From assembly GCA_012960135.1 (NCBI GenBank), contig DUBW01000040.1, positions 64,491 through 100,886 of the forward strand: 36,396 nucleotides of DNA, given 5' to 3'. Below, piece after piece: positions 11,092 to 19,451 of this stretch. Positions within the stretch are counted from its first letter, which is position 1, and the number at the start of each line of letters is the position of its first letter. A program made the position numbers and the translations under genes. The notes under the pieces are model-generated. The model searched no databases. It was not told the origin of the DNA and saw only the letters and a list, made by a program, of their open reading frames with translations. The DNA is from Methyloprofundus sp. (GTDB taxonomy: Bacteria; Pseudomonadota; Gammaproteobacteria; Methylococcales; Methylomonadaceae).

Positions 11092-14000
11092 ATGAACAAA
11101 TATTCCCCATTAGATAAAAAAGATCAATTGTTATATAACGCTGAAACTTCACAAGATAGCTGTGGCGTGGGCTTTATTACTCATAAACAAAGCAAACAGA
11201 CGCATGATTTGCTGAATAAATCACATGAAGCCTTATGCACCATTCCGCATCGAGGAGGCATGAGCGCGGAAGGCATTGGCGATGGTGCTGGTGTCAATAT
11301 TGATTTATCACTGAAGTTTTTCCGCAAAGTTACTGCAAAACAAGACTTGCAGCTAGGTCAGTTCGGCGTTGCCAACTTTTTCTTCCCCGAAGATCACAGC
11401 CATTTTGACTCTGCAGCGCATGACTTAGTGGTTAGTCATCTAAAGAAGCATGGTTTACCCATTATCAAATGGCGTGATATCCCAGTCGATAATAGTGTGC
11501 TCAATCAAGCCTCAATTAATGCTCAACTGCCTATTAAGCAAGTGATCTTTGGTCGCCCAGATGCATTAGCAAAAAGCGCTAGCCATGATGAGTTTGAATA
11601 TTATATTCAGGACGTTCTATTAAGTATTGAAGAAGAAGGTTATACCCGTCATGAACTAGTTGGATTTTATCCGCTATCGATGAGTTCTCGCACCCAGGTT
11701 TATAAAGGCCGTCTGAACTCAGGCGAAGTGATTCCTTACTTCACTGACTTATACGATAAAGACCACGAAATTAATACCCTATTTTTCCATACCCGGTTTT
11801 CTACCAATACCGCGCCAGCAACGATGATGGCTCAGCCATTCCGCTATATGGCGCATAATGGCGAATTAAACACAGATAAGAAAAACCGCCTCAGCGAGCA
11901 GGCAATTGCCAGACAACATGGTAAAAACCTGGTCTTTCCTATTGGCCAATCAGATTCCAGTCGCCTGGATCAAACTTTATCACGCCGCATTCATGAAGAT
12001 AAGCTGGATATTGTCACTGCTATTCTAGCGATGATGCCACCTGCCTGGGAAAACGACACCACTTTATCGGCTGACGTAAAAGCTATGCTGGAGTATTTCA
12101 GCTTGTATGAAGAGAAAAATGATGGCCCAGCGGCACTGATTTTTAATGATGGCATACGCGTTGGCGCACGTCTTGACCGCCTTGGCTTACGGCCTCTGCG
12201 CTCTGTTGAAACAATAGACTATTTAGCGGTTATGTCAGAAGCGGGGCAAATCGACTTTCCTTCTGCAGATATCTTAAAGCGTGGGCGTATCGAAGCGGGC
12301 GGCATGATTTATTTTGATCATAGCACCGGCGAAGCCTACAACAGCTATCAAGTGATGGAACGCCTGGCAAAAGAAACAGATTATCATGCGCTATTAAAAG
12401 CACGCGCGATTCATCTGGATGAACTGGAAACTGTTACATTAGCCGAGATAGATAATCAACATAGCTTTAATATAGATCAGCAGCATACCGCTTATTCGCT
12501 TAATCAGGAAAGTTTTAAATTCTTGCTAGACCCTATGTTAAGCACCGGCTTAGAAAAAATTTCTGCGATGGGTTATGGCGTTACGCCTAATTCCCTGTCA
12601 AGTGCTGAAGGTGGAATGTCACGTTATTTCAGCCAGCGCTTTGCCCAGGTCACTAACCCGCCACTGGATTCACTGCGTGAAAGTGATGGTATGTCCTTGC
12701 GCGTTGCTCTGGGTGCAAAACCCAATTTTTCTGAGCAAAACAGTCAGCAACTAGTGATTAGCTCGCCAATTTTGCAACGCACTCAATTGGAACAAATTCG
12801 CCAACAGCCTACTGTTAGCATACAAACCATAGATGCTTTATATACAGTTGATACAGAAGATGCCGAGCAAAATGCTAAAAACCTGCTACAGGCCTTAACA
12901 GAAGTTTGTAATACAGTAGGCCGAGCCGCAAGAAACAATACCGGCATCATTATTCTTAGCGATATTAACATCAGCAAAGATCAGGCAGCCCTCCCTGCCC
13001 TGTTACTGATTTCAGCCGCTAATCAACATCTGGTAAAAGAAGGCTTACGCTTTAATTCATCACTGATTTCTGAAACGGGGCAGGCAGTTAGCGCACATGA
13101 TGTTGCGACTATCCTGGGTTTTGGAGCATCTGCTATCTGCCCACTCAGTGTGCATAACCGGGTGATCTCGCAATACAGTATCGATACGCAACAGACTGCA
13201 CTAGACAGATTTCAAAAAGCGGTAGAAAAATCGCTAATGAAAATCATGGGTAAATTCGGCCTATGTACTGCAGAAAGCTACATCGGTGGTGAGTTCTTTG
13301 AGTCTAATTACATCGATACCGATGAGCCGATTCTGGAAATCTACTTCCCCAATATTAATTCTTCTGTAGGTGGTGTTCGTTTTGCGGATATTGCAGCCAG
13401 TGCGACAGAATGGCATGCCAAAGCTCTTGAAGTAGATAACGAAAGTGATATACCCTTCCTGGGTCTTTTTAAAGAGCGTAATGAAGGTGCCGGCCATACC
13501 TTTGGTAACTCATCGGTACGTGAATATATTAATATGACAGATGAAGATATTCTGTATGTTAATCAGGACAAATCACCCGCTGTTAGCGATACGGCCTATA
13601 CTGACTTTGGTTATGAGAAACGTACACCAGAGCAAATTGATAACTTTGGCATAACCCCTGCTTACCGTAATTTCAGCAAGATTCTGATGCAGGAACGTGA
13701 TGGCCGCCCAGCAGCCTTACGTGATGTTATGAGCTATCCAGCTGATATTTCCCGTGCTAAAGAAACGGCCGAATTTGATGCCATTTTAGGTAAACAGAAT
13801 CTACGCGGGAATATTAATTATAGTATTCGTGGCTTAACCGTTACCCAGCTCCAGCAGGGTAATGGATTTGAGGTCAGCTTAAGTAATGACTCCACTAAGC
13901 AGCGTCTGGAAAATCTGGCTGCGCATTTTAGCTCACGTTTTGCCGATCAGGCACTGACTGTTGAAGTAACACAGACAGCTATTCAAATCACAGTCGAAGA

Positions 14001-16551
14001 CGCACACAGCCTTGCTGGACTGTATCTGAGCACGATTATCGGCGCCCGCGCAGCAATTAGCCTAGGCGATGTGCAGCCTGCGCATGAAATCACACCAACC
14101 CTGGCAACAGGCGCAATGAGCCATGGAGCCTTATTAGCTGAAGCGCATGAAGCAGTGGCACAAGGTACTAATATCGCCGGAGCCATGAGTAACTCGGGTG
14201 AAGGTGGCGAGCATTCGAGTCGCTTTAATACTATTCGTTCCAGCAAAATCAAGCAATTTGCATCAGGCCGTTTCGGTGTCTGGGCTGGCTATCTTGCCGA
14301 CTTAAATATCGAAGAAATTGAAATTAAAATCGCTCAGGGTGCAAAACCCGGTGAAGGTGGCCAGTTACCTGCGGCTAAAGTCTCGGTAGAAATTGCAGCC
14401 GCTAGAGGTGGAACACCTAAAGTTGAATTAATCAGCCCTCCTCCGCACCATGACACCTATTCGATTGAAGATTTAGGCCAACTAATTCACGATGCCAAAG
14501 CGGCTCGCGTTAGAGTAGTCGTAAAACTGGTTTCTTCGGAAGGAATTGGTACTATCGCTGTGGGAGTTGCTAAAGCCGGTGCAGACGTGATTAACGTCGC
14601 AGGTAATACTGGTGGTACCGGGGCTGCAGCAGTAACCAGCCTAAAAAATACCGGACGCTCACCTGAAATTGGTATTTCCGAAGTGCATCAAGCGCTGTCA
14701 GTAAATGGCTTGCGCGATAAAGTCATATTACGCTGTAGTGGCGCACACCAGAATGGTTCCGATGTCGTTAAGTCAGCCATACTAGGTGGTGATTCCTTTG
14801 AATTCGGTACCACAGCCCTGATGATGCTGCGCTGTGTGATGGCAAAAAATTGTAATATTCGCTGCCCTGCTGGTTTGACCACCATTCATGAAGAATTTAA
14901 AGGTGATCCCCGGGTTTTGGCCCAGTATTTTATGAATCTGGCGCATGAAGTACGTGAAATCCTTGCTGCACTGGGTTACCGTAGTCTCGCGGAAATACGC
15001 GGTCAAACTGACTTATTGCATTTGATGGATCATAAAACCATGATTGGTCAAATGAACTTTAGCAAGCTGCTCAATTATGTTGATGTAATACATATTGATA
15101 ACCCGGTTTACCTGGAAGCTGATTTTTCTATTGATGACAAAATCATGGCGCAATTCAAAGCCAGCTTTATAAAGGCAAAGCAGGAACAGGTCATTATTGA
15201 AGGCGCTGAGTTTAAGCTGAATAACCGTCACAAAACAGTGGGTGGCCAGACAGCGATTGATATAGAGCGGCTTTTAGCTTATCAACTAAAAACTGAACAT
15301 TCTAAAGTTTATACCAACCAGCATCAGCGTCGCTATTTAGCGCCTGATTCACTGATTGTACGCACTCACGGCTCAGCCGGACAAAGTTATGCCGCATTCA
15401 ATAATGACGGTATGCGCATGGAACATACCGGTACCTGTAATGATGGTGTCGGTAAATCATCCTGCGGCGGAACCATTATTATTAAATCACCTGGCGGCGG
15501 ACATAAAGTCCCGGGCGAGAATGTCTTAGTCGGCAACTTCTCATTATTCGGTGCCACCGGTGGCAAAACCTTTATTAACGGTGAAGCGGGCGACCGCTTT
15601 GCTGTACGTAATTCGGGTGCAATGGCGGTTGTCGAAGGCGTAGGTGATTTCGCTTGTGAGTATATGACTAACGGTGCGGTATTAAATCTCGGCAGTTTTG
15701 GTAAAGGTTTCTGTAACGGCATGTCCGGCGGAAATGCGTACCAATATGATCCTAAAGATAAATTACAGCATTTATATGATGCTTCTTCGATTGAAATAAG
15801 AAACTTAACAGAAGACTGTGATACCGCACGCGCGCATGAGCAATTTATTTTAGCGATGCTAGAGCAACATGCTGAGTATGCTGAGTCCAGTGTCGCACAA
15901 AAAATACTGGATAACTGGGATAAAGAGCGTGAGCATTTTAAGTTTGCCATTCCGCTCTGGTTATACAAAACTCAGACAGCAGAATTTATAGCGACAACAG
16001 TGGATCGCAAAACCATTATTGAAGAACTGGCCGTTGATCAGGCACAACAGCAAATCATTCAGGTCCAAGAGGCCTATGCTGGTAGTCATGTTTTATTTGG
16101 CGGCCTAACGCCTGATTATGGTGAAACCGATAGCCTGCTTGCCTTTAAAATGATCAATAGCTTTACGGTACTGAATAAAGCAACGCAAATTGCAGCCACT
16201 CAAGTACAGAGCCAACAACAAACTGAAGTTGCCGCACAGCGCCTGATTACGACGAGAGCAAGAAAACTGCAGGATGTTTTAGTCAAAGAAACGCGTGAAG
16301 CCTACGCAAACTATGATGATATGCAGCTGGCTAACCTGCTAGCCAATAAGCGCTTAAATGACTATAAGCAGGCATTAATGTTGCGCGATGTACAAAGCAT
16401 CTACTCGATTGGATCGACTAACTGGATTATCGAACAGACAGAGATTAACAACCAGGCACTGCAGGATATACCTAGTGTCGATGAATACCTTGCAGCACTA
16501 AACAGCCAGGTAGTTATCCAGGATATGATCAAAATCAAAGAAGCTGCCTAA
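11092..16551 (+). CDS. Glutamate synthase large subunit-like protein, long divergent form
   Basis: A 1819-residue protein with the domain order of GltB (usually about 1480-1520 residues). Glutamine amidotransferase class II: Cys24 in DSCGVGF would be the mature N-terminal nucleophile after propeptide removal, and AHNGELNT lies around 254-261. Central domain about 470-900. FMN synthase domain: GAMSHGAL at 1007-1014, NSGEGGE at 1034-1040, KPGEGGQLP at 1085-1093, ISPPPHHDTYS, NTGGTGAAA. Cysteine cluster C1248, C1254, C1258, spaced x5/x3 rather than the usual x5/x4. GXGXG domain about 1420-1560. A C-terminal extension of about 190 residues follows residue 1628, partly charged and helical. No gltD is near; a CysJ-like reductase starts 96 bases downstream. 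Ammonia-transfer chemistry is likely, but the electron partner, and possibly the product, may differ from classical GOGAT. Confidence 0.85.
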   Translation: MNKYSPLDKKDQLLYNAETSQDSCGVGFITHKQSKQTHDLLNKSHEALCTIPHRGGMSAEGIGDGAGVNIDLSLKFFRKVTAKQDLQLGQFGVANFFFPEDHSHFDSAAHDLVVSHLKKHGLPIIKWRDIPVDNSVLNQASINAQLPIKQVIFGRPDALAKSASHDEFEYYIQDVLLSIEEEGYTRHELVGFYPLSMSSRTQVYKGRLNSGEVIPYFTDLYDKDHEINTLFFHTRFSTNTAPATMMAQPFRYMAHNGELNTDKKNRLSEQAIARQHGKNLVFPIGQSDSSRLDQTLSRRIHEDKLDIVTAILAMMPPAWENDTTLSADVKAMLEYFSLYEEKNDGPAALIFNDGIRVGARLDRLGLRPLRSVETIDYLAVMSEAGQIDFPSADILKRGRIEAGGMIYFDHSTGEAYNSYQVMERLAKETDYHALLKARAIHLDELETVTLAEIDNQHSFNIDQQHTAYSLNQESFKFLLDPMLSTGLEKISAMGYGVTPNSLSSAEGGMSRYFSQRFAQVTNPPLDSLRESDGMSLRVALGAKPNFSEQNSQQLVISSPILQRTQLEQIRQQPTVSIQTIDALYTVDTEDAEQNAKNLLQALTEVCNTVGRAARNNTGIIILSDINISKDQAALPALLLISAANQHLVKEGLRFNSSLISETGQAVSAHDVATILGFGASAICPLSVHNRVISQYSIDTQQTALDRFQKAVEKSLMKIMGKFGLCTAESYIGGEFFESNYIDTDEPILEIYFPNINSSVGGVRFADIAASATEWHAKALEVDNESDIPFLGLFKERNEGAGHTFGNSSVREYINMTDEDILYVNQDKSPAVSDTAYTDFGYEKRTPEQIDNFGITPAYRNFSKILMQERDGRPAALRDVMSYPADISRAKETAEFDAILGKQNLRGNINYSIRGLTVTQLQQGNGFEVSLSNDSTKQRLENLAAHFSSRFADQALTVEVTQTAIQITVEDAHSLAGLYLSTIIGARAAISLGDVQPAHEITPTLATGAMSHGALLAEAHEAVAQGTNIAGAMSNSGEGGEHSSRFNTIRSSKIKQFASGRFGVWAGYLADLNIEEIEIKIAQGAKPGEGGQLPAAKVSVEIAAARGGTPKVELISPPPHHDTYSIEDLGQLIHDAKAARVRVVVKLVSSEGIGTIAVGVAKAGADVINVAGNTGGTGAAAVTSLKNTGRSPEIGISEVHQALSVNGLRDKVILRCSGAHQNGSDVVKSAILGGDSFEFGTTALMMLRCVMAKNCNIRCPAGLTTIHEEFKGDPRVLAQYFMNLAHEVREILAALGYRSLAEIRGQTDLLHLMDHKTMIGQMNFSKLLNYVDVIHIDNPVYLEADFSIDDKIMAQFKASFIKAKQEQVIIEGAEFKLNNRHKTVGGQTAIDIERLLAYQLKTEHSKVYTNQHQRRYLAPDSLIVRTHGSAGQSYAAFNNDGMRMEHTGTCNDGVGKSSCGGTIIIKSPGGGHKVPGENVLVGNFSLFGATGGKTFINGEAGDRFAVRNSGAMAVVEGVGDFACEYMTNGAVLNLGSFGKGFCNGMSGGNAYQYDPKDKLQHLYDASSIEIRNLTEDCDTARAHEQFILAMLEQHAEYAESSVAQKILDNWDKEREHFKFAIPLWLYKTQTAEFIATTVDRKTIIEELAVDQAQQQIIQVQEAYAGSHVLFGGLTPDYGETDSLLAFKMINSFTVLNKATQIAATQVQSQQQTEVAAQRLITTRARKLQDVLVKETREAYANYDDMQLANLLANKRLNDYKQALMLRDVQSIYSIGSTNWIIEQTEINNQALQDIPSVDEYLAALNSQVVIQDMIKIKEAA

Positions 16552-16647
16552 ACTAAAATCCAGGTATTTAATAACGACCCTTACATTAAAAAGTAAACAC
16601 TTTGCTACCAAACTTACTTTACATAAAGACCTTTTTAAGAATAGCCC

Positions 16648-18384
16648 ATGAAAACAGCGAATAATTCTCAAAACATACCTTTCAATGAGGCACAACAAGC
16701 CTGGTTAGGTGGTTTTTTTGCAGGCATGCATTCCCATATATTACAAAGTGCAGGTTCCGGCGATGCTGCTAATGCCCGCACTATTAGCATTTTATACGGT
16801 TCGCAAACAGGTAACTCGGAATCGGTTGCCTATGATGCCGCTCAACTTGCTAAAGCGCATGGCTTAAACCCTAATGTGTTGAGTATGGATGAAATTGAGG
16901 CTGATAATTTTATCAAGCTTGAATACCTATTAATCATCACCAGTACCTACGGTGAAGGCGAAATGCCGGATAACGCGCAGATGCTATGGGATGCCATTAG
17001 TTCAGACGACAGCATCGACCTGGCGCAAATGCACTACTCGGTACTAGCCCTCGGGGATACTAGTTATGACTTATTCTGCCAAGCAGGTATAGACTGGGAT
17101 CAACGCCTGGAAAAACTCGGAGCCAAACGTCTGTATGAGCGGGTAGATTGTGATGTTGATTTTGACGATGCGGCTGAAGCCTGGATTAGCAACACAATTC
17201 CACTGATGGCTGATGGTGCTGCAACAATCACTGTGGACAGTAGCAAGACTTCAAACGCACCAAAATATGGCCGTAAAAACCCATTCCTGGGCAAACTCGT
17301 CACTAACCGCTTATTAAGCAGCCCTGATTCTTCAAAAGAAATTCGCCATTATGAAATTTCCATTGTAGGCTCTGGATTAAGCTACGAAGCAGGTGACGCC
17401 CTGAATGTTGTCCCAGTTAACTGCCCGGAATTAGTCAGCGATATTATCAGCGCAATTGGTTGCAGCGGCGATGAAGATGAGCCGGTTAGCGGAGAATTAA
17501 TGCCGTTCACTCAAGCATTAAGCGAACACTTTGAAATCAAACTGCCAAGTAAAGAATTATTAGAAGAAATTGCTAAACGCTCTGGCGATCAGAAGCTAAA
17601 TAATGCCTTAAGCTCTGGTGATAAAGACAAACTTGCCAGTTATTTATGGGGACGTGACACCCTGGATTTATTACTGCAATCCCCTGAAATGCAATTCTCG
17701 GCCGCCGAGTTTCTAGCCTTACTTAAACCACTGCAGCATAGAGCCTACTCTATCTCGTCCAGTGGCAAAGCCCATCCTGACACAGTACATTTAACCATCA
17801 GCAGCGTGCGTTATAACAGTCATGATCGCGAACACAAAGGCGTTTGCTCAACTTACCTGTCTGATTTAGCCAATGAAGAGACCGCTGTACGTTGCTTCTT
17901 CAGCCCCAATAAAGTCTTCAGAGTACCTGAAGACAATGACCTGCCGATGATTATGGTCGGCCCTGGAACGGGTATCGCACCTTTCCGTGCTTTTTTGCAA
18001 GAACGTGAATTCAGAAATGCCAAAGGGGTTAACTGGTTATTTTTTGGTGACCGTAATGCCTCTACAGATTTTATCTACCGCGATGAAATTGAAGCAATGC
18101 AAAAGAGTAGCGTATTAGGCAAACTAGACCTTGCCTTCTCCCGTGATCAGGAAGAAAAAATCTACGTTCAAGACCGTATGCGTGAACAAGGCGCAGAATT
18201 ATTTACTCTGCTAGAACAAGGCGGGTATTTCTTTGTCTGTGGCGATGCCTACCGCATGGCCAAAGATGTCGATAAAGCATTGCATGATGTAATTTCCACT
18301 CAAGGCAGCATGTCAGAAGAACAAGCAGCAGAATACGTTAATCAAATGAAAAAAGATAAGCGCTATGTAAGGGATGTTTACTAA
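16648..18384 (+). CDS. NADPH diflavin reductase, CysJ-like
   Basis: A 578-residue cytoplasmic flavoprotein. Flavodoxin-like FMN domain at about 45-190: ILYGSQTGNSES at 48-58, STYGEGEMPDNA, ALGDTSYDLFC. FAD domain at about 205-420: RAYSISSS at 365-372. NADP-binding region: VGPGTGIAPFRAFLQER at 437-453, FFGDRN at 465-470, CGDAYRMAKDVDKAL from 531, ending KRYVRDVY as in CysJ. Family members pass NADPH electrons through FAD and FMN to a partner. CysI (sulfite reductase haemoprotein) is not nearby; the upstream neighbour is the long GltB-like protein, which lacks a GltD partner here. Donation to that protein is the contextual inference; service to a CysI encoded elsewhere is the alternative. Probably co-transcribed. 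Confidence 0.9.
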   Translation: MKTANNSQNIPFNEAQQAWLGGFFAGMHSHILQSAGSGDAANARTISILYGSQTGNSESVAYDAAQLAKAHGLNPNVLSMDEIEADNFIKLEYLLIITSTYGEGEMPDNAQMLWDAISSDDSIDLAQMHYSVLALGDTSYDLFCQAGIDWDQRLEKLGAKRLYERVDCDVDFDDAAEAWISNTIPLMADGAATITVDSSKTSNAPKYGRKNPFLGKLVTNRLLSSPDSSKEIRHYEISIVGSGLSYEAGDALNVVPVNCPELVSDIISAIGCSGDEDEPVSGELMPFTQALSEHFEIKLPSKELLEEIAKRSGDQKLNNALSSGDKDKLASYLWGRDTLDLLLQSPEMQFSAAEFLALLKPLQHRAYSISSSGKAHPDTVHLTISSVRYNSHDREHKGVCSTYLSDLANEETAVRCFFSPNKVFRVPEDNDLPMIMVGPGTGIAPFRAFLQEREFRNAKGVNWLFFGDRNASTDFIYRDEIEAMQKSSVLGKLDLAFSRDQEEKIYVQDRMREQGAELFTLLEQGGYFFVCGDAYRMAKDVDKALHDVISTQGSMSEEQAAEYVNQMKKDKRYVRDVY

Positions 18385-18464: not shown

Positions 18465-18989
18465 ATGAACAGGCAACTATTGATTTTACGACATGGTAAA
18501 TCCGACTGGAGTGTCGGTCATGGTGATATTAAAAGGCCTTTGAAAACACGTGGCAAAAGAGCATCACAACGTATGGGCTTGTGGCTACAGCAACAAGCCC
18601 TGATTCCGGACTATATCCTGAGTTCGCCAGCCGCAAGAGCCAAAAATACAGCTAAAATAGTAGCCGAAGCCATGGGCTTAACTGTGCAACAGATTCATTA
18701 TCGCTCACAACTTTATGCTGCAAATTTAAGGCAGCTGAAAAATGCATTGGCACTATGCCCACATCATAGTAAACGAGTATTGTTAATAGGACATAATCCA
18801 GAACTGGAGTCCTTGTTAGTATTTCTAAATAAGGGCAGCCTAGCTATCCCTGATTGCGGGAAATTATTACCCACGGCAACACTTGCAGTCTTTGATATGC
18901 CAGATGACTGGAATGTATTAAGTGAGGGCTGTGGCAAATTATTAAGTATTACCCGACCGAAAGATCTTCTTGATAGCGTGGAGTTGTAA
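18465..18989 (+). CDS. SixA-like histidine phosphatase
   Basis: A 174-residue single-domain histidine phosphatase. LRHGKSDW at the N-terminus supplies the RHG catalytic histidine (residue 10). SSPAARAKNTAKI contributes the second arginine, and LLIGHNPELE the second catalytic histidine. Size and the RHGKSDW form match the SixA branch, which dephosphorylates histidine-phosphotransfer proteins in E. coli; other substrates are possible. It is 80 bases after the diflavin reductase stop with a TGAGGCG ribosome site before ATG, and may be in the same transcript. Confidence 0.85.
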   Translation: MNRQLLILRHGKSDWSVGHGDIKRPLKTRGKRASQRMGLWLQQQALIPDYILSSPAARAKNTAKIVAEAMGLTVQQIHYRSQLYAANLRQLKNALALCPHHSKRVLLIGHNPELESLLVFLNKGSLAIPDCGKLLPTATLAVFDMPDDWNVLSEGCGKLLSITRPKDLLDSVEL

Positions 18990-19139: not shown

Positions 19140-19451
19140 ATGAGTGTCGCCAATTTTTCCATTGGGCAAATTGTTCAGCATCGCTTATTCAATTACCGTG
19201 GTATCGTTATTGATGTTGATTACAAGTTTCTGGGCACTGACGATTGGTACCAACAGAGTGCTCAAAGCCGGCCTCCAAAAGACCGGCCCTGGTACCACGT
19301 GTTGGTCGATAATAGTATTCATCAGACCTATGTAGCCGAACGTAATCTTGAAATAAGTGAAGATATTTCCAGCATTCACCACCCTATGCTAGACCACTAT
19401 TTTATCGTGATGAAAAATGGTAAATACCAGCTTAGAACACGGAAGAATTGA
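19140..19451 (+). CDS. hspQ: Heat shock protein HspQ (YccV, hemimethylated DNA-binding fold)
   Basis: A 103-residue protein, close to the 105 of E. coli HspQ. Seen: FSIGQIVQHRLFNYRGIVIDVD, RPWYHVLVDN, HQTYVAERNLE and a C-terminal HHPMLDHYFIVMKNGKYQLR, all in the family's order. HspQ binds hemimethylated oriC DNA and tunes Lon protease in enteric bacteria. A GAGGATAAAATA site precedes the ATG. Upstream, GGTTATAATTGTC near 19069-19081 holds a good TATAAT -10 candidate, so it probably has its own promoter. Confidence 0.9.
   Translation: MSVANFSIGQIVQHRLFNYRGIVIDVDYKFLGTDDWYQQSAQSRPPKDRPWYHVLVDNSIHQTYVAERNLEISEDISSIHHPMLDHYFIVMKNGKYQLRTRKN

What the first reader, a model, noticed from the sequence alone, without database searches (positions are those of the whole stretch)
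11092..18384. Long GltB-like protein paired with a CysJ-type diflavin reductase instead of GltD
Seen: an 1819-residue protein with the amidotransferase, FMN and GXGXG domains of glutamate synthase is followed at 96 bases, same strand, by a complete CysJ-like NADPH diflavin reductase. Neither gltD nor cysI is present in the window. Known: bacterial GltB normally takes electrons from GltD, plant-type forms from ferredoxin, and CysJ from NADPH to CysI. Inference: the diflavin reductase feeds the FMN/Fe-S centre of this GltB-like enzyme, making an NADPH glutamate synthase of a different architecture, or a related ammonia-using enzyme with a new product. This is the best candidate in the window for an undescribed system.
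Basis: partly seen in the sequence, partly recalled or inferred. Interest (0 to 1): 0.75.

Follow-up and report, generated by a model that had tools for sequence, protein, structure and literature searches.

The report
Glutamate synthase with diflavin reductase partner
A pair of bacterial genes found in several distant groups looks like a glutamate-making enzyme that gets its electrons from a two-flavin reductase instead of the usual iron-sulfur partner, which would be a further design of a central nitrogen-assimilation enzyme.

Summary
An 1819-residue GltB-like protein (GltB* here) is followed after 96 nt by a CysJ-like diflavin reductase (GltJ), in a genome that looks like a Methyloprofundus-type methanotroph. 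The pairing is not local. GltJ follows GltB* directly in 72 of 75 named, mostly Methylococcales loci, in four same-class genomes from other orders, and in 9 of 9 plasmid records with near-full-length GltB* (five genera, including Rhizobiaceae and the actinobacterium Tsukamurella). In 41 relatives the two genes occur in the same 21 genomes. Two 100%-complete genomes carry the pair with no match to the sulfite/nitrite reductase domain and no GltD. Methylotuvimicrobium buryatense has the pair plus a separate cysJ beside cysI, and no GltD. Checked glutaminase and 2-oxoglutarate residues are conserved. GltB* has a C-x5-C-x3-C motif (76 of 76), a ~95-residue insert and a long helical C-terminal domain, lacking in six conventional GltBs. 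GltJ forms a clade apart from 12 CysJ-type reductases. Best reading: an NADPH glutamate synthase with the electron path NADPH-FAD-FMN-[3Fe-4S]-FMN. Coupling is very likely and glutamate as product likely; neither is shown biochemically. I found no description in the papers searched.

The parts
11092..16551 (+). gltB* : long GltB-like glutamate synthase large subunit, 1819 aa
11161..12387 (+). class-II glutamine amidotransferase domain (residues 24-432), catalytic Cys24
   Evidence: Cys24, R54, N256, G257, D288 conserved in 24 of 24 GltB* rows and 6 of 6 conventional GltBs
12481..13305 (+). glutamate synthase central domain (residues 464-738)
13744..14046 (+). clade-specific insert of about 95 residues (about 885-985) just before the FMN/synthase domain
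   Evidence: residues 880-990: 102-112 letters in 24 of 24 GltB*, 11-15 in 6 of 6 conventional; alpha/beta in the model; no Pfam match over cut-off
14053..14979 (+). FMN/synthase domain (residues 988-1296)
   Evidence: K1085, Q1091, R1105 and E1126 conserved in 24 of 24
14833..14865 (+). Cys1248-x5-Cys1254-x3-Cys1258, expected [3Fe-4S] ligands, one residue shorter than x5/x4
   Evidence: 76 of 76 long GltB* ORFs; 6 of 6 conventional are x5/x4
15286..15816 (+). GXGXG beta-helix domain (residues 1399-1575)
15967..16548 (+). clade-specific all-helical C-terminal domain (residues about 1626-1819)
   Evidence: 181-203 letters from residue 1626 on in 24 of 24 GltB*, 19-47 in 6 conventional; model of 1558-1819 pLDDT 87; no PDB fold match at E<=0.001; no Pfam match over cut-off
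16552..16647 (+). 96-nt gap between the two genes
16648..18384 (+). gltJ : CysJ-like NADPH diflavin reductase, 578 aa
16789..17184 (+). flavodoxin (FMN) domain of GltJ (residues 48-179)
17272..17856 (+). FAD-binding domain of GltJ (residues 209-403), signature RAYSISSS
   Evidence: signature in 69 of 69 GltJ rows against RLYSIASS in 12 of 12 CysJ-type rows
17953..18273 (+). NADPH-binding domain of GltJ (residues 436-542), S498/R499/K504/Y506
   Evidence: these residues conserved in 69 of 69 GltJ rows

Best explanation
GltB* and GltJ are the two subunits of an NADPH-dependent glutamate synthase in which a diflavin reductase replaces the GltD (beta) subunit. Proposed path: NADPH reduces FAD on GltJ; electrons pass to the FMN of its flavodoxin domain, then one at a time to the [3Fe-4S] cluster of GltB*, then to the FMN of the synthase domain. 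That FMN reduces 2-iminoglutarate, formed from 2-oxoglutarate and the ammonia channelled from glutamine hydrolysis at Cys24, to glutamate. The clade-specific C-terminal helical domain, the pre-synthase insert and the shortened cluster loop are the likely places where GltJ docks or the coupling is controlled. Shown: domain content, conserved catalytic residues, pairing, co-occurrence, absence of GltD and of CysI in key genomes, separate clades. Inferred: physical association, electron path, product, docking sites. A consequence (inferred) is a cofactor set with one Fe-S cluster instead of three.
For: Adjacency: 72 of 75 named loci, median gap 86 nt. It also holds in G188, G411, G416 and G334 outside the order at 46-53% GltB* identity, with unrelated flanking genes around the two of these annotated, and in 9 of 9 plasmid records with near-full-length GltB*. 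Co-occurrence: in 41 relatives, 21 of 21 GltB* genomes have GltJ and 0 of the 20 others has a match at that level; eight of those have a CysJ at 40-46%. G188 and G411 (100% complete) have no PF01077 match, no GltD at E<=1e-30 and one CysJ-type gene each. M. buryatense G288 has GltB*-GltJ, a separate cysJ (43%) beside cysI, and no GltD. GltD over cut-off in only 2 of 19 GltB* genomes, both of which also have conventional GltB. E. coli CysI finds nothing in 84 loci carrying GltB*. Catalytic and substrate residues conserved. GltJ separate clade, SH-aLRT 98; GltB* separate from 6 conventional, 100. GltB*/GltJ distance correlation 0.965 over 17 representatives, 0 of 2000 permutations as high.
Against: No biochemical or structural evidence of complex formation. 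GltB* has clade-specific changes near the expected 2-oxoglutarate/FMN site (S/T-A-M-G-Y for G-S-M-G followed by D/N/T/A), so a different acceptor is possible. Two loci (L118, L142) have GltB* without GltJ beside it. The genome of L142 has GltJ elsewhere, behind gltB-gltD; in the genome of L118 only a 42% CysJ was found (completeness of that assembly not told). Six named loci show a conventional gltD end or gene upstream of GltB*, so GltB* need not be the main glutamate synthase everywhere. Tree and mirror-tree results partly reflect shared descent. The synthase-half model was poor (pLDDT 64).
Confidence: 0.8

Rival explanations
1. GltJ is an ordinary sulfite reductase flavoprotein (CysJ) that happens to sit beside a glutamate synthase gene and serves a CysI elsewhere.
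For: Domain architecture and closest solved relatives are CysJ; database records name relatives 'sulfite reductase subunit alpha' or cysJ; the window's genome has one 557-aa siroheme reductase of the CysI/NirA superfamily and no other CysJ.
Against: G188 and G411 have the gene but no PF01077 match. M. buryatense and G020 have a second CysJ-type gene beside a PF01077 gene (CysI identity checked by tblastn for M. buryatense only). Scores fall under the TIGR01931 cysJ cut-off in 6 of 6 tested. The window genome's reductase is NirA/DUF934-type. G018 and G024 have PF01077 genes but no CysJ at E<=1e-20.
Confidence: 0.05
2. The pair is real and coupled, but the enzyme aminates another 2-oxo acid or makes another product, not glutamate.
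For: Deep divergence from conventional GltB (about 32-45%), coexistence with conventional gltBD in some genomes, clade-specific loop around Met493, clade-specific insert and C-terminal domain.
Against: The checked glutaminase residues and the equivalents of K972/Q978/R992/E1013 are conserved in 24 of 24. In the window's genome and in the nine same-genus genomes given to it is the only GltB at E<=1e-30 and no GltD is found, so it would have to replace the usual enzyme; glutamate dehydrogenase was not searched for.
Confidence: 0.12
3. GltB* is driven by free ferredoxin or flavodoxin and GltJ only recharges that carrier.
For: Fd-dependent glutamate synthases exist (PMC8097209); nothing here shows direct contact between the two proteins.
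Against: GltB* has no extra sequence in the region where, by recall, Fd-type enzymes carry the ferredoxin loop; it is shorter there than five of six conventional GltBs and equal to E. coli. No carrier gene is annotated directly beside the pair in four annotated plasmid regions, though two neighbours are hypothetical proteins. GltJ has its own flavodoxin domain.
Confidence: 0.05

Closest known systems
Bacterial NADPH glutamate synthase GltB/GltD (alpha/beta GltS)
   Same: Same four large-subunit domains, catalytic Cys, ammonia and 2-oxoglutarate residues, three cluster cysteines; NADPH expected as donor
   Different: No GltD partner; reductase is FAD+FMN with no Fe-S domain found; x5/x3 cysteines; about 95-residue insert; about 195-residue C-terminal domain
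Ferredoxin-dependent glutamate synthase (plant/cyanobacterial)
   Same: Large subunit alone carries FMN and one Fe-S cluster; donor comes from outside (PMC8097209)
   Different: No ferredoxin-loop insertion in the corresponding region (loop position recalled); NADPH diflavin partner encoded beside it
Assimilatory sulfite reductase flavoprotein CysJ (SiRFP)
   Same: GltJ has the same three domains, NADPH-site residues, N-terminal motif and C-terminal RDVY
   Different: Own clade, RAYSISSS for RLYSIASS, below the cysJ equivalog cut-off, beside gltB* and not cysI, present in genomes without a PF01077 match

Membership tests
NADPH-GltS alpha/beta (GltB/GltD) | PurF-type glutaminase with catalytic Cys and glutamine-site residues | tested here: met
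   24 of 24 GltB* rows conserve them; Pfam GATase_2 306 bits; CGVGF motif in 74 of 76 long ORFs, the two misses L117 and L122 aligning only from residue 27 and 117
NADPH-GltS alpha/beta (GltB/GltD) | Central, FMN/synthase and GXGXG domains with three cluster cysteines | tested here: met
   cysteines present but spaced x5/x3
NADPH-GltS alpha/beta (GltB/GltD) | Passes NCBIfam NF008730 (glutamate synthase large subunit), cut-off 1047 bits | tested here: inconclusive
   Window protein 1069.1 passes; G188 998.3, Shinella 1045.8 and Tsukamurella 986.4 fall below
NADPH-GltS alpha/beta (GltB/GltD) | GltD (FAD + two 4Fe-4S) as electron-donating partner | tested here: not met
   No GltD in window or its genome; no match at E<=1e-30 in 15 of 19 GltB* genomes and over cut-off in only 2, which also have conventional GltB
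NADPH-GltS alpha/beta (GltB/GltD) | NADPH- and glutamine-dependent glutamate formation | not testable with these tools
   needs enzyme assay
Ferredoxin-dependent GltS | Ferredoxin-loop insertion in the synthase domain | tested here: not met
   No insertion in the 7 GltB* rows shown; shorter than five of six conventional GltBs and equal to E. coli. Loop position recalled; no Fd-GltS row in that alignment
Eukaryotic-type fused NADH-GltS | Large and reductase parts in one polypeptide | tested here: not met
   Separate ORFs in the window; the G416 case is two ORFs split by TAA
CysJ (sulfite reductase flavoprotein) | Flavodoxin, FAD and NADPH domains | tested here: met
CysJ (sulfite reductase flavoprotein) | Passes the TIGR01931 cysJ equivalog cut-off | tested here: not met
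   611.3 against 668.15 for the window protein; 5 further GltJs 562-645
CysJ (sulfite reductase flavoprotein) | Encoded beside CysI, or in a genome holding CysI | tested here: not met
   E. coli CysI finds nothing at E<=1e-6 in 31 GltJ loci with 1.5 kb flanks or less nor in 84 loci carrying GltB*; G188 and G411 have no PF01077 match
CysJ (sulfite reductase flavoprotein) | Clusters with CysI-linked CysJ in a tree | tested here: not met
   GltJ 24 rows against CysJ-type 12 rows, one branch, SH-aLRT 98, quick tree; 4 of the 12 have cysI beside them and a fifth (L176) a more distant PF01077 gene

The most novel reading that the evidence does not exclude
A further class of glutamate synthase: GltB* plus a dedicated diflavin reductase, with one Fe-S cluster instead of three, its own helical docking or regulatory domain, spread as a two-gene unit across Gammaproteobacteria, Alphaproteobacteria and Actinomycetota, and replacing GltBD altogether in methanotrophs such as Methyloprofundus and Methylotuvimicrobium buryatense.
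Probability: 0.75. Interest if true: 0.8.

Novelty: new variant of a known kind. Interest (0 to 1): 0.74.

Why it matters
Glutamate synthase is a main ammonia-assimilating enzyme of bacteria and plants, and the review seen here (PMC8097209, passages and section 10 part 1) lists GltD-type, ferredoxin-type, fused NADH-type and archaeal split forms. A diflavin-driven form would show the large subunit accepting another kind of electron donor. It would make the rule that GOGAT needs GltD or ferredoxin testable. It would correct gene names such as 'sulfite reductase subunit alpha', bear on nitrogen and NADPH accounting in metabolic models of methanotrophs, and offer a GOGAT with fewer Fe-S clusters for engineering.

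Tried and rejected
Fusion in G416: the genome search reported an open frame of 2363 aa, but the sequence shows GltB* ending in TAA and GltJ starting at an ATG after 15 nt, in the same frame; rejected as a fusion.

CysI-contact residues of CysJ (F496, V500 of E. coli, recalled): position 500 varies among CysJ-type rows too, so the test says nothing.

Iron-starvation control: no Fur-box-like site stands out upstream of GltB* in 16 regions. L151 scores 13 of 19, equal to the best of its 200 shuffles; the others lie within the shuffle range. The iron-sparing idea is therefore unsupported, only not excluded.

Fold of the C-terminal domain: confident mostly helical model, but no PDB match at E<=0.001. 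The model of residues 800-1819 was poor; its seven best matches (E<=3.7e-25) were glutamate synthases, followed by flavocytochrome b2 and IMP dehydrogenase barrels.

Papers: ten searches gave no description of the pair in their listings. Only CC-licensed PMC papers are held. One listed paper, on the Caulobacter iron response (PMC3751524, passages only), mentions a glutamate synthase with large and small chains and, elsewhere, a sulfite reductase flavoprotein in an iron-regulated cluster.

Not tested: glutamate dehydrogenase in the window's genome; conventional GltB below E=1e-150 in G188, G411, G416, G334 and G288; chromosomes of the plasmid hosts.
Full report
OBSERVATION. Pfam gives GATase_2, Glu_syn_central, Glu_synthase and GXGXG for the first and Flavodoxin_1, FAD_binding_1 and NAD_binding_1 for the second. 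E. coli GltD and CysI find nothing in the window by tblastn, while GltB and CysJ do. I call the proteins GltB* and GltJ; these names are mine.

WHERE IT IS. The window lies in a 2.5 Mb, 92-contig assembly of 90% completeness. The best-matching named loci (81-86% over the C-terminal region searched) are Methyloprofundus or Methylococcaceae MAGs and methanotrophic Bathymodiolus gill symbionts (the window's own record may be left out there). A methenyl-H4MPT cyclohydrolase gene in the window fits a methylotroph. In this genome GltB* is the only full GltB found (the other match, L004, is a 546-aa protein with the Glu_synthase domain alone). GltJ is the only CysJ-type protein apart from a 27%-identical partial match. 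There is no GltD: best match 27.8 bits against a 447.7 cut-off. The siroheme reductases are a NirB-like protein (L006) and a 557-aa NirA-family protein next to a DUF934 gene; the latter scores 114.5 bits against the 756.55-bit CysI cut-off.

PAIRING, NEAR. In 41 relatives, 21 genomes have GltB* (long-form matches; split genes in G003, G013 and G015 counted as present) and exactly the same 21 have a GltJ of 69-100% identity. The other 20 have no match at that level; eight of them have a CysJ at 40-46%. Three same-family genomes without GltB* (G018, G021, G024) show only a conventional GltB (a partial one in G021, which is 77% complete) and no CysJ at E<=1e-20. Of 18 loci with a GltB* of near-full length (L003, L014-L030), 17 show GltJ starting right after it; the 18th contig (L023) ends 111 nt behind the match.

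PAIRING, NAMED LOCI. One scan of a collection of 84,980 species' genomes with two exact peptide patterns from the C-terminal region, which by design reaches close relatives only, gave 75 loci. Of these, 69 carry titles of Methylococcales organisms or methanotrophic symbionts, among them Methylobacter, Methylotuvimicrobium buryatense, Methylovulum and Crenothrix. Six have vaguer or other titles: L078 (Methylophaga), L080, L088, L098, L138, L140. GltJ starts on the same strand within 600 nt of the GltB* stop in 72 of 75 (median gap 86 nt, range 9-242). The three misses are L139 (held stretch ends), L118 and L142 (other sequence follows). The genome of L142 has GltJ elsewhere, directly behind a conventional gltB-gltD; the genome of L118 shows only a 42% CysJ. 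At least 16 of the 21 GltB* genomes above share a contig length with one of these loci, so the two sets overlap.

PAIRING, FAR. The order of G188 has it in 3 of 32 genomes, that of G334 in 1 of 4. In G188, G411, G416 and G334 a GltJ of 38-47% identity (over the part visible; 43-52% over the whole protein) follows directly. The gaps are 9 nt in G188 and 15 nt in G416, and the longest ORFs overlap in G411 and G334. The surrounding genes annotated around G188 and G334 are unrelated: pantoate synthesis and poly(A) polymerase, or an FMN-dependent dehydrogenase and a TPR protein. Of 72,556 plasmid records, 213 match GltB*. The nine best of the 40 listed (H1-H9) match 98-100% of its length at 50-55%; the rest listed match in two or three pieces at 35-37%. 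The nine are Sinorhizobium BG8, Neorhizobium, Shinella (2), Ketogulonicigenium vulgare (4) and Tsukamurella tyrosinosolvens. All nine have GltJ at once downstream, and these nine are also the nine best GltJ records of the collection (annotation absent for Sinorhizobium, position). They are five genera, so nine is not nine independent cases. The annotated records name the genes 'glutamate synthase-related protein' or gltB, and 'sulfite reductase (flavoprotein) subunit alpha' or cysJ. Tsukamurella also has a conventional gltB with a beta-subunit gene on another record of the same strain.

IS IT A SULFITE REDUCTASE SUBUNIT? G188 and G411, both 100% complete, have no PF01077 match (the control rang in 11 of 14 known genomes), one CysJ-type gene each (the GltJ) and no GltD at E<=1e-30. 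M. buryatense keeps a second CysJ-type gene (43%) beside a CysI (51% to E. coli CysI) as well as GltB*-GltJ; G020 has the same arrangement by coordinates. Against this stands that 17 of the 19 genomes searched do hold PF01077 genes. Among 19 GltB* genomes tested for GltD, 15 have no match at E<=1e-30. G022 and G023 have a GltD over cut-off and a conventional GltB. G334 has a GltD-like gene (61% to E. coli GltD, no gltB in the 14 kb fetched), and G020 has a partial match. In a quick tree GltJ (24 rows) and CysJ-type proteins (12 rows) are separated by one branch, SH-aLRT 98. Rows CJ_L176, GJ_L160 and CJ_L175 are long; 4 of the 12 lie beside cysI and a fifth beside a more distant PF01077 gene. 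The FAD motif is RAYSISSS in 69 of 69 GltJ rows and RLYSIASS in 12 of 12 CysJ-type rows (Tsukamurella and a few incomplete GltJs were not in that alignment, and L094/L152 are one record twice). GltJ scores below the cysJ equivalog cut-off in 6 of 6 tested but above the cut-off of another 'sulfite reductase subunit alpha' model (NF004859) in 5 of 6, which probably explains the database names.

IS IT A GLUTAMATE SYNTHASE? Compared with six conventional GltBs, 24 of 24 GltB* keep the catalytic Cys, the checked glutaminase residues and the positions that correspond, by recall, to K972, Q978, R992 and E1013 of the Synechocystis enzyme; the serine of the NSGEGG stretch is Cys in 3 of 24. The three cluster cysteines are present with spacing x5/x3 in 76 of 76 long GltB* ORFs and x5/x4 in 6 of 6 conventional ones; four or five residues after the cluster are also missing. 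Clade-specific differences: residues 880-990 hold 102-112 letters in 24 GltB* against 11-15 in the six conventional ones, and the part from residue 1626 on holds 181-203 against 19-47. A further difference is an S/T-A-M-G-Y stretch in place of G-S-M-G followed by D, N, T or A; I take its Met493 to be Met479 of the Azospirillum enzyme, which PMC8097209 says may control electron transfer between cluster and FMN. No conserved cysteines appear in the insert or the C-terminal domain, so I infer no extra cluster. The C-terminal domain is predicted as a helical bundle (pLDDT 87) without a significant PDB match. The Fd-loop region has no insertion. The NCBIfam large-subunit model accepts the window protein (1069.1 against 1047) but not the three distant GltB* tested (986-1046).

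CO-EVOLUTION. Pairwise distances of GltB* and GltJ correlate at 0.976 over 70 pairs (one record twice) and 0.965 over 17 representatives; 0 of 2000 permutations reached the latter. Shared descent alone gives high values, so this shows that the two travel together, not that they touch. Occurrence on plasmids of Alphaproteobacteria and an actinobacterium suggests transfer as a unit (inference).

MECHANISM. The best-supported account is NADPH to FAD to FMN (GltJ), then [3Fe-4S] to FMN (GltB*), then 2-iminoglutarate to glutamate. Domain content and NADPH-site conservation are shown; the transfer steps and the product are inferred from known GltS and CysJ chemistry. I put coupling at about 0.9 and the whole statement at 0.8.

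KNOWN OR NEW. The review PMC8097209 (passages; section 10 part 1) names the alpha/beta NADPH form, the ferredoxin form, the fused NADH form and archaeal split forms, and does not use the word diflavin. A study of Methylomicrobium alcaliphilum reports GOGAT up-regulation and does not name gltB (PMC6570963, passages). Ten searches found no description of the pair. They cover only open-licence papers, so it may have been described elsewhere. I rate it a new variant of a known kind: same catalytic subunit family, new electron-input partner.

Noticed in passing
L125:4-11559, L131:91-11702 (also L092, L135, L139; partial in L123): A conventional gltD, with gltB in front of it where the stretch reaches far enough, lies upstream of gltB*-gltJ on the same strand, so both kinds of glutamate synthase stand in tandem in some Methylococcales.
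   Followed up: partly
L226 (genome of L142): In this MAG gltJ follows gltB-gltD directly while gltB* is on another contig; either a rearrangement or an assembly effect.
   Followed up: partly
L004:108-1745 (-), contig C83 of the window's genome: 546-aa protein with only the Glu_synthase (FMN) domain and no amidotransferase.
   Followed up: no
L105:11886-12245 (same contig as G022:C119, by length): An inverted fragment of about 120 codons, 57-58% identical to gltJ, lies just downstream of the intact gltJ.
   Followed up: no
G014:C21:2139-3797 (L071): A second, 71%-identical GltJ in an assembly with 7% contamination.
   Followed up: no
window 18465-18989 and 19140-19451: SixA-like histidine phosphatase (61.4 bits, below its 74.5 cut-off) and HspQ follow gltJ on the same strand; a histidine phosphatase gene also lies about 2 kb downstream of gltJ on the Neorhizobium plasmid (L216:16188-16754). 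Possibly coincidence.
   Followed up: no
NCBIfam NF004859 (PRK06214): The model 'sulfite reductase subunit alpha' accepts 5 of 6 GltJ proteins tested, so database entries with that name may include glutamate synthase partners.
   Followed up: partly
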